DNA from: Candidatus Limnocylindrales bacterium
Lineage (GTDB): Bacteria > Moduliflexota > Moduliflexia > Moduliflexales > JAUQPW01
Reading direction: 5' to 3'
Assembly (NCBI GenBank): GCA_035559535.1
Contig: DATMBG010000026.1
Location: forward strand, 62,001-126,000
Length of the DNA: 64,000 bases
The position numbers and the translations under genes are program-made. The notes beneath the pieces were generated by a model that was not told the DNA's origin, did no database searches, and saw nothing but the letters and a program-made list of their open reading frames with translations. Position 1 is the first letter of the stretch. Every line of letters begins with the position of its first letter. Positions 6,155 to 60,151 of this stretch are shown one piece after another.

Positions 6155-6346
6155 CCCCATAGACACCAGAATAAGCTGAAAAGCCCCGTCAGCAACTGTG
6201 TTAAAAGTCAAAGGGCGAACAGTGGGTAGCTCCCGACGCAAGTCGGGGGATTCAATCTTTCAGAATTTTCTTCAAGCTCCGGAGGAGCGGCCTGTTAAAC
6301 AGGTCGCTCCGCTGAAGCTAACCTTCTTATTCTGGTACCTATGGGG
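6155..6346. mobile_element. MITE-like element, copy 1, with terminal inverted repeats
   Basis: The ends are inverted repeats: CCCCATAGACACCAGAATAAG at the left and the complement of CCCCATAGGTACCAGAATAAG at the right. The interior carries GGGCGAACAGTGGGTAGC, the hairpin CCGACGCAAGTCGG, the palindrome CCTGTTAAACAGG and the trailer GCTGAAGCTAACCTT. The same interior modules recur at 9896-10063 and, inverted, at 59952-60151. No coding capacity is present, so any mobility would depend on a transposase elsewhere. Confidence 0.7.
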
Positions 6347-9740: not shown

Positions 9741-10136
9741 TTCTATCTTTCCCTGTCCTCCTTCTCCTGGCTTTCCAAGGATATCTTTTTTATTAACCTG
9801 ACCCCCTTCCCGATGCAGGAAGGGGGAATTTGGGGGTTACCTATGTCCCCCCTCTCCTCTTCCCTCACAGGGAAAGGGAGTCGAAGGGATCCGCGCCAGG
9901 ATAAGCTGAAAAACCCTGTCAGGGGCGAACAGTGGATAGCCCCCGACATAAGTCGGGAGATTCAGAATTTTTTTCAAGCTCCGAAGGAAGCCCCCCTTCC
10001 CCCGCATGGGGGAGGAATTAAGGAGTGGCCTGTTAAACAGGTTGCCCCGCTGGGGCTAACCTTGAAAGCCATCCCCGTATCTCCGTGTCTCCGCGTCCCC
10101 CCGCGTCCCCCCCCCATCCCCGCGTCTCCGTGTCCC
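9741..10136. other. Repeat-only gap of about 400 bases
   Basis: No supported gene. The region holds a palindrome CCCCCTTCCCGATGCAGG (about 9804-9835, with a relative at 60171-60200), MITE copy 2 (9896-10063) and the C-rich member of the GGGGACACGGGG repeat (10072-10140). The last of these runs to the stop codon of the next gene at 10137. Confidence 0.7.
9896..10063. mobile_element. MITE-like element, copy 2, one end lost and internally interrupted
   Basis: Begins CCAGGATAAGCTGAAAAACC and carries the same interior modules as copy 1: GGGCGAACAGTGGATAGC, a hairpin CCGACATAAGTCGG, the palindrome CCTGTTAAACAGG and the GGGGCTAACCTT trailer. A separate G/C palindrome (CTTCCCCCGCATGGGGGAG) interrupts it at about 9987-10024. 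The right terminal inverted repeat (CTTATYCTGG) is missing. Confidence 0.65.
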
Positions 10137-26510: not shown

Positions 26511-26539
26511 GTAGGGGCGCAATACCTTGTGCCCGTACT
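26511..26539. repeat. GGGGCGC...GCCCGTAC palindromic repeat, divergent copy
   Basis: GTAGGGGCGCAATACC followed by TTGTGCCCGTACT. It shares ends with the copies at 30102, 30271 and 31918 but has a different central palindrome. It lies in the gap between a GT4 gene and AsnB 2. Confidence 0.65.
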
Positions 26540-29341: not shown

Positions 29342-29427
29342 GGCTTATGTAAATTTTGTTACGAAGGTTGGGTGTTACGAACCCTCTCATGGACCCGGGG
29401 TCATCTGGAATCCCAAATTTTTCTATT

Positions 29428-29988
29428 TCATCCCAGGATATCTTGGACGGCCAATCCCACATCGGGGAAGGCCTGAGGAAAAAGGTTTTGATCACACTGA
29501 AATCGTTTAATTTCCAGGTATCCTTGAGGTGATGGCTTCTGGTAGACTTCGATACAATCTGCGGTCAGGTCTACCAGCCAGACCTCCGGAATCCCAGACT
29601 TTGCGTACAAAGGTATCTTTACTTCTCGGTCGTAGGTTAAAGGAGTGTCGGCTACTTCCACAACAGGCAGGACATCCTGGGGTTGGGGATGGGCTTGAGC
29701 ATAGAAATCGCTACGTGGTCGAAGCAAGGCCAGATCTGGCTGCAGTTCTGAGTGTTCACTTAAATAAATGGGATTCTGAACACTTACTATAGCACGTTCT
29801 CCTACCCATTGAGAGAAGAGTCGGGTCAAACGATTTACACAAGCGGCATGTTGACTGCCGATCGGAGGCACTTCTACAATCTCTCCTTTGATGAGTTCCA
29901 CCCGATCATCCTCCGAGAGGATTCCGGCCTTTGCCATTTGATGGTATTCTTCTACCGTAAAAAGACGCTTTGAAACTTGCGTGGACAT
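29428..29988 (-). CDS. Uma2 family putative restriction-endonuclease-like protein
   Basis: 186 residues, intact. The N-terminal helix FTVEEYHQMAKAGILSEDDR is followed by VELIKGEIVEVPPIG. The PD-(D/E)xK core appears as ELQPDLALLRPR, then VVEVADTPLTYDREVKIPLYAKSGIPEVWLVD (given as a region near 110-145), with the candidate catalytic Asp, Glu and Lys. Uma2 (DUF820) proteins are abundant in Cyanobacteria, Chloroflexi and Planctomycetes-like genomes, often in many copies. Their biological role is unsettled. It has no evident link to polysaccharide synthesis and, with the broken Uma2 locus next door, marks a small accessory island between wzx and the aminotransferase gene. Confidence 0.88.
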   Translation of the reverse strand: MSTQVSKRLFTVEEYHQMAKAGILSEDDRVELIKGEIVEVPPIGSQHAACVNRLTRLFSQWVGERAIVSVQNPIYLSEHSELQPDLALLRPRSDFYAQAHPQPQDVLPVVEVADTPLTYDREVKIPLYAKSGIPEVWLVDLTADCIEVYQKPSPQGYLEIKRFQCDQNLFPQAFPDVGLAVQDILG

Positions 29989-30101
29989 GACCAGCCTCGT
30001 TATAAGGAGGTTACAAATCTTTAGGTTCTACCCCCAGAGCTTGCAGTTGGGCTACCAGACTTTCTGCGCGTTGTCGTTCCTGCTCACGTTGTGCTACAAC
30101 T

Positions 30102-30130
30102 GGAGGGGCGCACGGCCGTGCGCCCGTACT
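30102..30130. repeat. GCGCACGGCCGTGCGC palindromic repeat, copy A
   Basis: A 16-base perfect palindrome flanked by GGAGGG on the left and CCGTACT on the right, 29 bases in all. It is inserted in the Uma2 pseudogene, inverted relative to copy B at 30271-30299. Confidence 0.85.
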
Positions 30131-30270
30131 AGGTAGCGAAAGGTTCACCATCGGGTTGATATAATCGCAGCTCCCCCTCCTCCAATTCAAACTATACTCC
30201 CAGAAGGGGGCTGACCCATCCCACCATTTGTTCAATTTCCTCCAATTCCTCACCAAATCTGGCCAACTGC

Positions 30271-30299
30271 GTACGGGCGCACGGCCGTGCGCCCCTCCA
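30271..30299. repeat. GCGCACGGCCGTGCGC palindromic repeat, copy B
   Basis: Same element as copy A in the opposite orientation (GTACGG left, CCCTCCA right). Its insertion causes the first frame break of the Uma2 pseudogene. Confidence 0.85.
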
Positions 30300-30713
30300 A
30301 ATCCGGATCGTACGCATAATACTCTTCTACGTAACGTTCATAAAAGCGGAACTTGCGTGTCATCTCGGCCAGGGTATTACTGGGTGACAGAATTTCAAAC
30401 ACAACCTGGGGCGGGATTCCCCCCTCCTGCCATTGTAAATACGAACCCCGGTCCCCCTTGGGTCGTCCAAAGACCACCATTATGTCCGGAACCGTACGAA
30501 TATCAGGTCGACCTTCCACAGGATACCACAACAAGTTGCCGGCTCCAAACACATCTTCCCGCTCGCGAAAGAGCGCCTCCAGTCCCTTCTCAATGGTTAC
30601 AATCCAACGGAATTGCTTGGTATTATCGGCTATGGGTCGTCCATCACTTTCTGGATAGATTATCGGTCTGGTTAGTAAAGATACGGCCATAGGAGTTTGA
30701 TCCCTCTTAAAGG

Positions 30714-31917: not shown

Positions 31918-31946
31918 GTACGGGCGCACGGCCGTGCGCCCCTCTA
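31918..31946. repeat. GCGCACGGCCGTGCGC palindromic repeat, copy C
   Basis: Same orientation as copy B (GTACGG left, CCCTCTA right). It lies between the aminotransferase and the fused dehydrogenase-acetyltransferase. Its right edge coincides with the TAG stop of the latter (31944-31946), suggesting insertion at or near that stop. Confidence 0.85.
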
Positions 31947-33545
31947 ATGGATACAGCTAACCGAATCATTTATCTTTTTGTAAACCCGTTTACATCGGGA
32001 GCATTGAGCCTTGTCATTGACAAACTTCAACTTAGTTCCGCATCGGCACATCCATCCGACGATACGTCCGGGGTTACCAACCACCAGTGCATAGTCTGGA
32101 ACATCCTTTGTAACTATAGCTCCGGCTCCGATAAAGGCAAAACGACCGATGGTAGTTCCACAAAGGATGGTTGCATTGGCGCCTATGGAGGCTCCGTATT
32201 TCACGAGGGTAGGTTGATAGTATTCACGCCCTCGCTGGGGAAATTCACATCGGGGATTCAGAACATTTGTGAAGACCATGGAAGGTCCGCAGAAGACATA
32301 ATCTTCCAGCTCGACCCCTTCATAGACCGATACATTATTTTGAATTTTCACAAAATTACCGATACGAACATTATTACCGATATTGACATTCTGTCCCAGG
32401 GTACAATTTTTACCGATTACGGCCCCTTTTTGGACATGGCTAAAGTGCCAGATTTTCGTTCCCTCTCCGATCTGACAACCTTCGTCTATTACTGCGGTTT
32501 CATGAACAAAGAACTTCTGATTGGGGGGTGTTTGGAGATTTACCCGGATATTTTCATTCCGGGTTTCCCTATTTTCTAATCGGGCCTGTGCCTGTTCCAA
32601 AATTTCCAGGACTTTGATACCGTTCTTTCCATCGGTAAGCGGTTGAGTTCCTGTGGTCACACACTGCATAAAGTGTTCGAGTTCGAGTTGGAGGGGTTCT
32701 TCATCTGAATATTCGATAACCTGGTAATCAGCATCTCGCTTTTGGGGTTCTCCCTGCACCCAATCGATCCCTTTGGGATAGAGTATCAACCGATCTTGTT
32801 TTTTCGAATCCTCGAACACGATCATATTTTTATCTCCGATGACGACCAGGCGATGTTCCTTGAAGGGGTGAAGCCAGGATACATGGATATGTGCATGGAT
32901 ATTTCTGGGGTAACGGAGGATGGTCAGCGTAACATCATGGATGCCGGGTTGTAAAAATATTCCTCCCTTAGCATCGATTTCCACGGGATCTTCTTCGATG
33001 AGGTATTGCAGGACTGAGATATCATGGGGTGCGAAGGACCAGAGGATATTTTCCTCTTTTCGCACGGTACCCAGATTCAGGCGATTACTGTAGATATATT
33101 GAAGTTTTCCCAGGGTACCGTCCTGGATCAACTGTTTAATTTTTCGGATGGCCGGATGATAGAGGAGCAGGTGGCCGACCATTAAAATCTTTTTTCTCTG
33201 TATAGCCAGATGATCCAGGTCCCTGGCCTGATAGGAGAAGAGGGCAAGGGGTTTTTCGACCAACACATTTTTATCGGCCTCCAGGCATCGTCTGGCGAGG
33301 GCATAGTGGGTTTCTGCCGGGGTCGCCACAACCACCCCCTGGACTTCTGGGTCGTTGAGGATTTCTTCGAGGTCGGTGACACCTTTTATTTTCTGGGAGA
33401 TCTCCCTTATTTTCTCCAGGTTTTTTTTATCCACATCACAGACATACTTGAGTTTCTCGCCAAAAATTCGATGAGCCGTTCTGACATGATTCATTCCCCA
33501 ACGACCGCATCCGACTATGGCTAACTTCATGGTGTTAGTATTCAT
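31944..33545 (-). CDS. Fused sugar-nucleotide 3-dehydrogenase and N-acetyltransferase (WbpB-WbpD type)
   Basis: 533 residues. Residues about 1-330 are a Gfo/Idh/MocA dehydrogenase: [49 protein letters not shown] with the conserved Lys, and [19 protein letters not shown], as in WlbA/WbpB. After a linker ([16 protein letters not shown]), residues about 350-515 are a left-handed beta-helix with hexapeptide turns ([52 protein letters not shown]). A C-terminal Cys-rich tail (CRCGTK ... CSRCKR) probably binds zinc, as in WbpD-like enzymes. The pair would oxidise UDP-GlcNAcA at C3 and acetylate the 3-amine made by the aminotransferase. Separate versions of both domains occur at 36319-37799. The start may be 33545 or 33530. 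Neither has a strong ribosome-binding site. Confidence 0.9.
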
Positions 33546-59951: not shown

Positions 59952-60151
59952 CCAGGATAAGTAGATTAACCGTCCCAGGATAAGTAGATTAACCGTCCCC
60001 GGTTGACAATTAGGTTAGCCCCAGCGGGACGACCTGTTTAACAGGCTGCTGCTCCGAAACTTGAAAAAACTTCTGGATGACTGAAACCCCGACGCAAGTC
60101 GGGGGGCTACCCACGGTTCGCCCTGGATGGAGCTTTTTATCCTTATCCTGG
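59952..60151. mobile_element. MITE-like element, copy 3, inverted
   Basis: Starts CCAGGATAAG and ends CTTATCCTGG, so it has 10-base terminal inverted repeats. The interior matches copies 1 and 2 in reverse: GGTTAGCCCCAGCGGG, CCTGTTTAACAGG, CCCCGACGCAAGTCGGGG, CTACCCACGGTTCGCC. Relative to the rest of the element the GCAA loop of the hairpin is reversed compared with copy 1. Its left part is extended by a 23-base tandem duplication (59952-59974 and 59975-59997, CCAGGATAAGTAGATTAACC). Confidence 0.7.

What the first reader, a model, noticed from the sequence alone, without database searches (positions are those of the whole stretch)
30011..30690. Uma2 gene broken by two inverted copies of one palindrome
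Two 29-base elements with core GCGCACGGCCGTGCGC, in opposite orientation and 140 bases apart, interrupt one Uma2 gene, each changing the reading frame. Removing them nearly restores the ancestral protein. This shows the repeat inserts into genes. A further TAG stop lies between them. A third copy touches the stop codon of the gene at 31944.
Basis: seen in the sequence. Interest (0 to 1): 0.55.

Follow-up and report, generated by a model that had tools for sequence, protein, structure and literature searches.

The report
Mobile DNA hairpins in dead gene
A broken bacterial gene carries two copies of a tiny hairpin-forming repeat, about 28 letters long, that belongs to a known kind of miniature mobile DNA and here seems to swap itself in for a few letters of its target.

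Summary
Two inverted copies of a palindrome (30102-30129, 30271-30298) lie in one minus-strand Uma2 gene, one at each frame change, with a TAG between them. A third copy supplies two bases of a neighbour's stop codon; a diverged fourth lies at 26511.

The unit is GTAS-GGG-(palindrome)-CCC-STAC, 28-29 nt, in over 100 dispersed copies. Feet and GGG/CCC base are conserved; the inner arms vary but stay paired. This fits published 'double-foot' GTAG REPs linked to TnpA-REP (RAYT) subclass 2.4. No RAYT was detected in this genome. The sister species has one with the subclass motifs and this kind of repeat inside its reading frame, as published for that subclass.

Insertion is supported. 'Removal restores the protein' is only partly right: gene bases are missing at both elements. 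'Broken by' is unproven, since the sister's copy is also dead, by other lesions. The spacer is gene sequence, so these are two insertions, not one doublet.

Most useful result: of 18 sister sites aligned, 8 have both flanks placed and a positive gap; there the sister has 5-13 nt (once 30) instead of the element. No target duplication was found.

The parts
30102..30129 (+). Element 1, 28 nt, foot GGAG instead of GTAG, other end GTAC; arms CGCACGG/CCGTGCG
   Evidence: folds as a single-stranded DNA hairpin at -10.6 kcal/mol, z -2.3
30271..30298 (-). Element 2, exact inverted copy of element 1
31918..31945 (-). Element 3, same arms, foot AGAG; supplies A and G of the TAG stop codon of the gene 31944-33545; the sister protein ends five residues later
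26511..26538 (+). Element 4, diverged arms, intact feet GTAG/GTAC
   Evidence: (-8.6 kcal/mol, z -4.3)
30301..30690 (-). N-terminal part of the broken Uma2 gene, frame -2
   Evidence: PF05685 E 3.7e-12 (on 30250-30690)
30130..30270 (-). Middle part of Uma2 between the elements, frame -3: the gene's own sequence, same orientation
30192..30194 (-). In-frame TAG between the elements
30011..30101 (-). C-terminal part of Uma2, frame -1

Best explanation
The elements are double-foot GTAG REPs: miniature, non-coding, hairpin-forming mobile DNA of the kind associated with TnpA-REP (RAYT) subclass 2.4. Shown: conserved feet and GGG/CCC stem base, inner arms that vary by compensatory change, dispersal in over 100 copies, absence from the sister genome at the sites that could be compared, and a short stretch of sister bases where the element stands. 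Inferred: the repeat moves as a single-stranded hairpin recognised at its foot by a subclass-2.4 TnpA-REP that is now lost from this genome, undetected in it, or supplied from outside; it is exchanged for a short stretch of target and often re-inserts close by, so nearby copies share arms. Two such insertions in opposite orientation, plus a point-mutation stop, lie in a Uma2 gene that was dispensable in this genus.
For: Copy number with feet fixed: 51 GTAG..GTAC (backwards control 0 and 1) and 52 GTAG..CTAC (control 0 and 0). Arms: 362 of 385 inner pairs Watson-Crick in 55 28-mers, shuffled halves mean 259, largest 282. Nearby copies share arms: 16 of 37 pairs within 2 kb identical, shuffled mean 1.28, largest 7 (107 elements). 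No element in the sister sites compared; 8 of 18 sites with both flanks placed and a positive gap of 5, 6, 7, 7, 9, 10, 13 and 30 nt; direct repeats of 3 nt or more at 1 of 58 elements, shuffled mean 1.03. The sister's transposase (NF047646, E 4e-19) has NHVH, WQ and YIANNP and carries three partial repeat units and one full palindrome in frame between HuH and Y, which are published traits of subclass 2.4 (PMC6006769).
Against: No Y1 transposase by PF01797 or NF047646 in the own genome; it is about 96% complete, and PF01797 also missed the sister's gene, so a RAYT split by repeats could be missed. The sister's RAYT scores 68.9 bits, below the curated cut-off of 80, and its internal arms (GGGTTT/AAACCC) are not the GGCC type of the own genome. 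Elements 1-3 have altered feet. Ten of 18 sister sites were not usable for the footprint, and direction of change at sister sites is inferred.
Confidence: 0.72

Rival explanations
1. Copies arise without a dedicated transposase, by replication template switching at hairpins: a stalled strand copies a nearby element, often inverted, and loses a few target bases.
For: No transposase detected in the own genome; identical arms cluster locally; the pairs within 300 bp whose orientation is known on both sides are inverted in 4 of 4 cases, two with identical and two with different arms (one search list); target bases are missing.
Against: Does not explain conserved feet in unrelated genomes (17 of 115), dispersal across contigs, or the same kind of repeat inside a RAYT gene.
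Confidence: 0.18
2. The elements are remnants or MITEs of a DDE-type insertion sequence.
For: Short, palindromic, dispersed.
Against: No target duplication (1 of 58, shuffled mean 1.03). No parent element with such ends was looked for systematically.
Confidence: 0.04
3. The repeats are kept for an RNA or DNA function (terminator, mRNA stabiliser) and not as mobile DNA.
For: Paired arms with compensatory change; stable hairpins.
Against: Not shared with a congener at the sites compared; present inside coding sequence out of frame.
Confidence: 0.04
4. Assembly or sequencing artefact.
For: Assembly in 58 contigs, reads not available here; three contigs begin at or within 7 bases of an element.
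Against: Copies sit in many different contexts; same-ended palindromes occur in other genomes, backwards control 0.
Confidence: 0.02

Closest known systems
Double-foot REPs of TnpA-REP subclass 2.4 (Quentin et al. 2018, PMC6006769; section 23 and passages seen, figures and supplement not seen)
   Same: GT[AG]G foot and C[TC]AC at the other end, three G-C pairs at the stem base, REPs inserted in frame within the tnpA-REP gene between HuH and Y motifs; the sister's gene has the subclass motifs.
   Different: No such gene detected in the genome that holds the window; about half of the copies have GTAC at the second end; the three elements at issue have an altered foot.
GTAG-tagged REPs (Di Nocera et al. 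2013, PMC3733652; parts 1-3 and sections 15-17 read, figures not seen)
   Same: 20-40 bp tagged palindromes, also within genes, close opposite pairs, tags that supply TAG stop codons.
   Different: Family consensus sequences are in a figure that could not be seen, so assignment to one of the 24 families was not possible.
REPINs (Bertels and Rainey 2011, PMC3116915; passages seen)
   Same: Inverted pairs of REPs; RAYT-linked.
   Different: Here the sequence between the pair is the host gene, so the pair did not enter as one unit.
Small dispersed repeats of cyanobacteria (Elhai et al. 2008; not held; recalled, seen only as a citation)
   Same: Recalled: 21-27 nt, compensatory changes, recently mobile.
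   Different: Not compared letter by letter.

Membership tests
Double-foot REP, TnpA-REP subclass 2.4 | GT[AG]G at one end and C[TC]AC at the other | tested here: inconclusive
   52 copies GTAG..CTAC, but 51 GTAG..GTAC; elements 1-3 have GGAG or AGAG
Double-foot REP, TnpA-REP subclass 2.4 | Three G-C pairs at the stem base (published for the canonical long REPs of the subclass) | tested here: met
   GGG/CCC in 55 of 55 28-mers; note that the search pattern required it
Double-foot REP, TnpA-REP subclass 2.4 | Stem kept by compensatory change | tested here: met
   362 of 385 inner pairs, shuffled mean 259
Double-foot REP, TnpA-REP subclass 2.4 | Subclass-2.4 transposase gene in the same genome | tested here: not met
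   none detected in G000 by PF01797 or NF047646; one in the sister G001
Double-foot REP, TnpA-REP subclass 2.4 | REP inserted in frame within tnpA-REP between HuH and Y | tested here: met
   in the sister only: L283 6157-6810
REPIN | Two inverted REPs and their spacer move as one unit | tested here: not met
   spacer aligns to Uma2 homologues, 15 of 15
DDE-type MITE | Target site duplication | tested here: not met
   1 of 58 flank pairs, shuffled mean 1.03

The most novel reading that the evidence does not exclude
REP hairpins spread by replacement: a single-stranded hairpin with GTAG/CTAC feet is swapped for a short stretch of target, roughly 5-15 nt, with no duplication, often near the donor copy and inverted. 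Only the feet and stem base are fixed, so each lineage evolves its own arms. This would be a natural-genome footprint of REP insertion, whose mechanism is stated to be unresolved (PMC8266576, introduction read).
Probability: 0.25. Interest if true: 0.65.

Novelty: new member of a known kind. Interest (0 to 1): 0.42.

Why it matters
How REPs spread is an acknowledged open question (PMC8266576, introduction). Two congeneric genomes, about 91% identical where aligned here, give filled and empty versions of the same sites, so the footprint of insertion can be read: no duplication, and a short stretch of sister bases absent. The sister's transposase with the repeat inside its frame gives a pair that can be tested in vitro. 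The same feet occur in 17 of 115 genomes; in the rich genomes whose matches were listed the arms differ, which suggests that the feet are what is recognised.

Tried and rejected
REPIN doublet: rejected, because the spacer is Uma2 sequence. DDE transposition: no duplication. Insertion into pre-existing palindromes: undecided. Mean flank stem score 1.64 against 1.32 shuffled (largest 2.21) is within range, but 5 of 58 elements have a stem of 5 or more against 0.85 expected, equal to the largest of 2000 shuffles. Retro-element: RVT_1 absent in G000 and G001. RAYT relatives: none in viral contigs, 4 plasmid records and 1 phage record, all under 60% identity, no solved structure by sequence. 24 Y1 transposase loci of other genomes: no exact-ended element in any; for several of them my script read the wrong strand, so those printed proteins were not used. 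Literature: (repeat letters) found 551 papers and the 20 listed are unrelated; led to the REP papers cited. I met no replacement footprint in the passages read, which does not show that none is in print.

Results against the reading: collinearity is lower at elements (17 of 38) than at control positions (123 of 147), but controls are not matched for gene content, so no claim is made that elements lie at breakpoints. Of 18 sites aligned, 8 are used; 3 gave negative gaps near the allowed limit (L018, L020, L006:2675; the last two have another repeat copy in the flank), and 7 have a flank too weak to use (L171:1501, L162, L176, L171:1644, L008, L010, L012). One of the 8 has 30 nt. Only the Uma2 losses are polarised by outside homologues, and the one at element 1 is uncertain because linkers vary. 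The odds of the novel reading were set at 0.25 rather than 0.3 after this recount.

Full report
WHAT IS THERE. The core palindrome occurs three times in the window and five times in the 5.6 Mb assembly. Elements 1 and 2 are perfect inverted copies 141 nt apart inside a minus-strand Uma2 (PF05685) gene. Element 3 overlaps the TAG stop of the next gene; the sister protein ends five residues later. Element 4, with diverged arms, lies at 26511-26538.

THE GENE. All 15 homologues tested align to three pieces in three frames. Nine resume at 30260 and have 8 residues (24 nt) where the window has the 28-nt element plus 12 nt; counted the same way the other six give a loss of 12 or 15 nt. At element 1 the five homologues with the shortest linkers (L056, L059, L061, L062, L065) give a loss of 6 nt; the others have longer linkers, so this figure is a minimum. 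Net gains of 16 and 22 nt both shift the frame. A TAG lies between the elements. The spacer is Uma2 sequence in the right orientation, which excludes entry as one doublet.

THE SISTER GENOME. G001 is of the same genus and about 91% identical where it aligns here. Its copy of the locus is a 3,483-base contig, by length and identity probably JAUQPW010000180.1. It keeps the N-terminal part with two TAG codons that the window copy lacks, and lacks window 29423-30300; a search of G001 with that region found only the two edges. Over 129 codons pN/pS is 0.23, so the gene was under selection for part of this history. Both copies are dead by different lesions, so whether the elements killed the gene or landed in a dying one cannot be told.

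THE FAMILY. There are 91 copies within 3 mismatches of one arm type. With feet fixed and centres free there are 51 GTAG..GTAC copies and 52 GTAG..CTAC copies. In the 55 28-mers among 60 elements in hand, 362 of 385 inner pairs are Watson-Crick, against 259 on average and 282 at most with halves shuffled, and there are 14 different perfect centres. Nearby copies share arms: 5 of 12 pairs within 300 bp and 16 of 37 within 2 kb are identical, against 0.41 and 1.28 shuffled. Elements 1-3, with the same arms and altered feet, are one such local group.

MOBILITY AND FOOTPRINT. Of 60 own elements, 38 have a matching flank and 17 both flanks collinear in the 1.88 Mb of G001 fetched. No element is seen in the 14 sister sites printed, and none exact-ended is listed in the loci of the other three. 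With element 3 added, 18 sites were aligned: 8 have both flanks placed and a positive gap, with 5, 6, 7, 7, 9, 10, 13 and 30 nt in G001 in place of the element; none has a gap of zero; 10 are not usable. Direct repeats are no commoner than chance. One of the 8 lies in a Fe-S protein gene and keeps the frame, adding seven residues.

THE ENZYME. No Y1 transposase (PF01797), RAYT (NF047646) or reverse transcriptase was detected in the own genome. PF01797 also missed the sister's RAYT, so absence rests mainly on NF047646. In G001 that model matches in two halves. Between them, in one open frame of 217 residues, lie three partial repeat units and one full palindrome, between the NHVH and YIANNP motifs (68.9 bits, cut-off 80). 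The published subclass 2.4 of TnpA-REP has NH[IFV]H, WQ and YIxNNP, double-foot REPs, and REP insertions between HuH and Y that keep the frame (PMC6006769). The RAYT's internal arms are of the type common in G001, not the GGCC type of the own genome.

MECHANISM. Shown: dispersal, conserved feet, compensated arms, local sharing of arms, and a short stretch of sister bases where the element stands. Inferred: single-strand hairpin transfer by a subclass-2.4 enzyme that is missing, undetected or external. The main rival is template switching during replication. How REPs spread is stated to be unresolved (PMC8266576, introduction).

VERDICT. A new member of a known kind, with an informative footprint. 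As a finding about one broken gene it is ordinary; as a set of filled and empty REP sites it is useful.

Noticed in passing
L283:6157-6810 (sister genome G001, minus strand): RAYT gene with three partial and one full GTAGGGG repeat unit inside its open frame, between HuH and tyrosine motifs.
   Followed up: partly
L157:1501-1528 (own genome): An element inserted in frame near the start of a Fe-S protein gene (CCG and Fer4 domains), which stays open and is seven residues longer there than in the sister.
   Followed up: partly
L160:1501-1528 and 1624-1651 (own genome): A second gene with an inverted pair of elements with identical arms, 123 nt start to start; the sister's copy is also decayed upstream. 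Its family was not tested.
   Followed up: partly
L171:1501-1528 (own genome); sister locus L288:337-951: An element sits at the 3' end of a gene whose sister copy is Cas4 (PF01930), altering its end; another element lies 143 nt downstream.
   Followed up: partly
L007, L008, L012, L014, L019 around position 1501 (own genome): Five elements share long similar flanks on both sides, so here the small palindrome rides in a larger repeat.
   Followed up: no
window 29428-29988: A second Uma2 gene next to the broken one, intact (PF05685 E 2.3e-34).
   Followed up: no
window 6213-6325, 9923-10063, 60012-60105: A different, longer repeat family (arms up to 79 nt, 82-88% alike).
   Followed up: no
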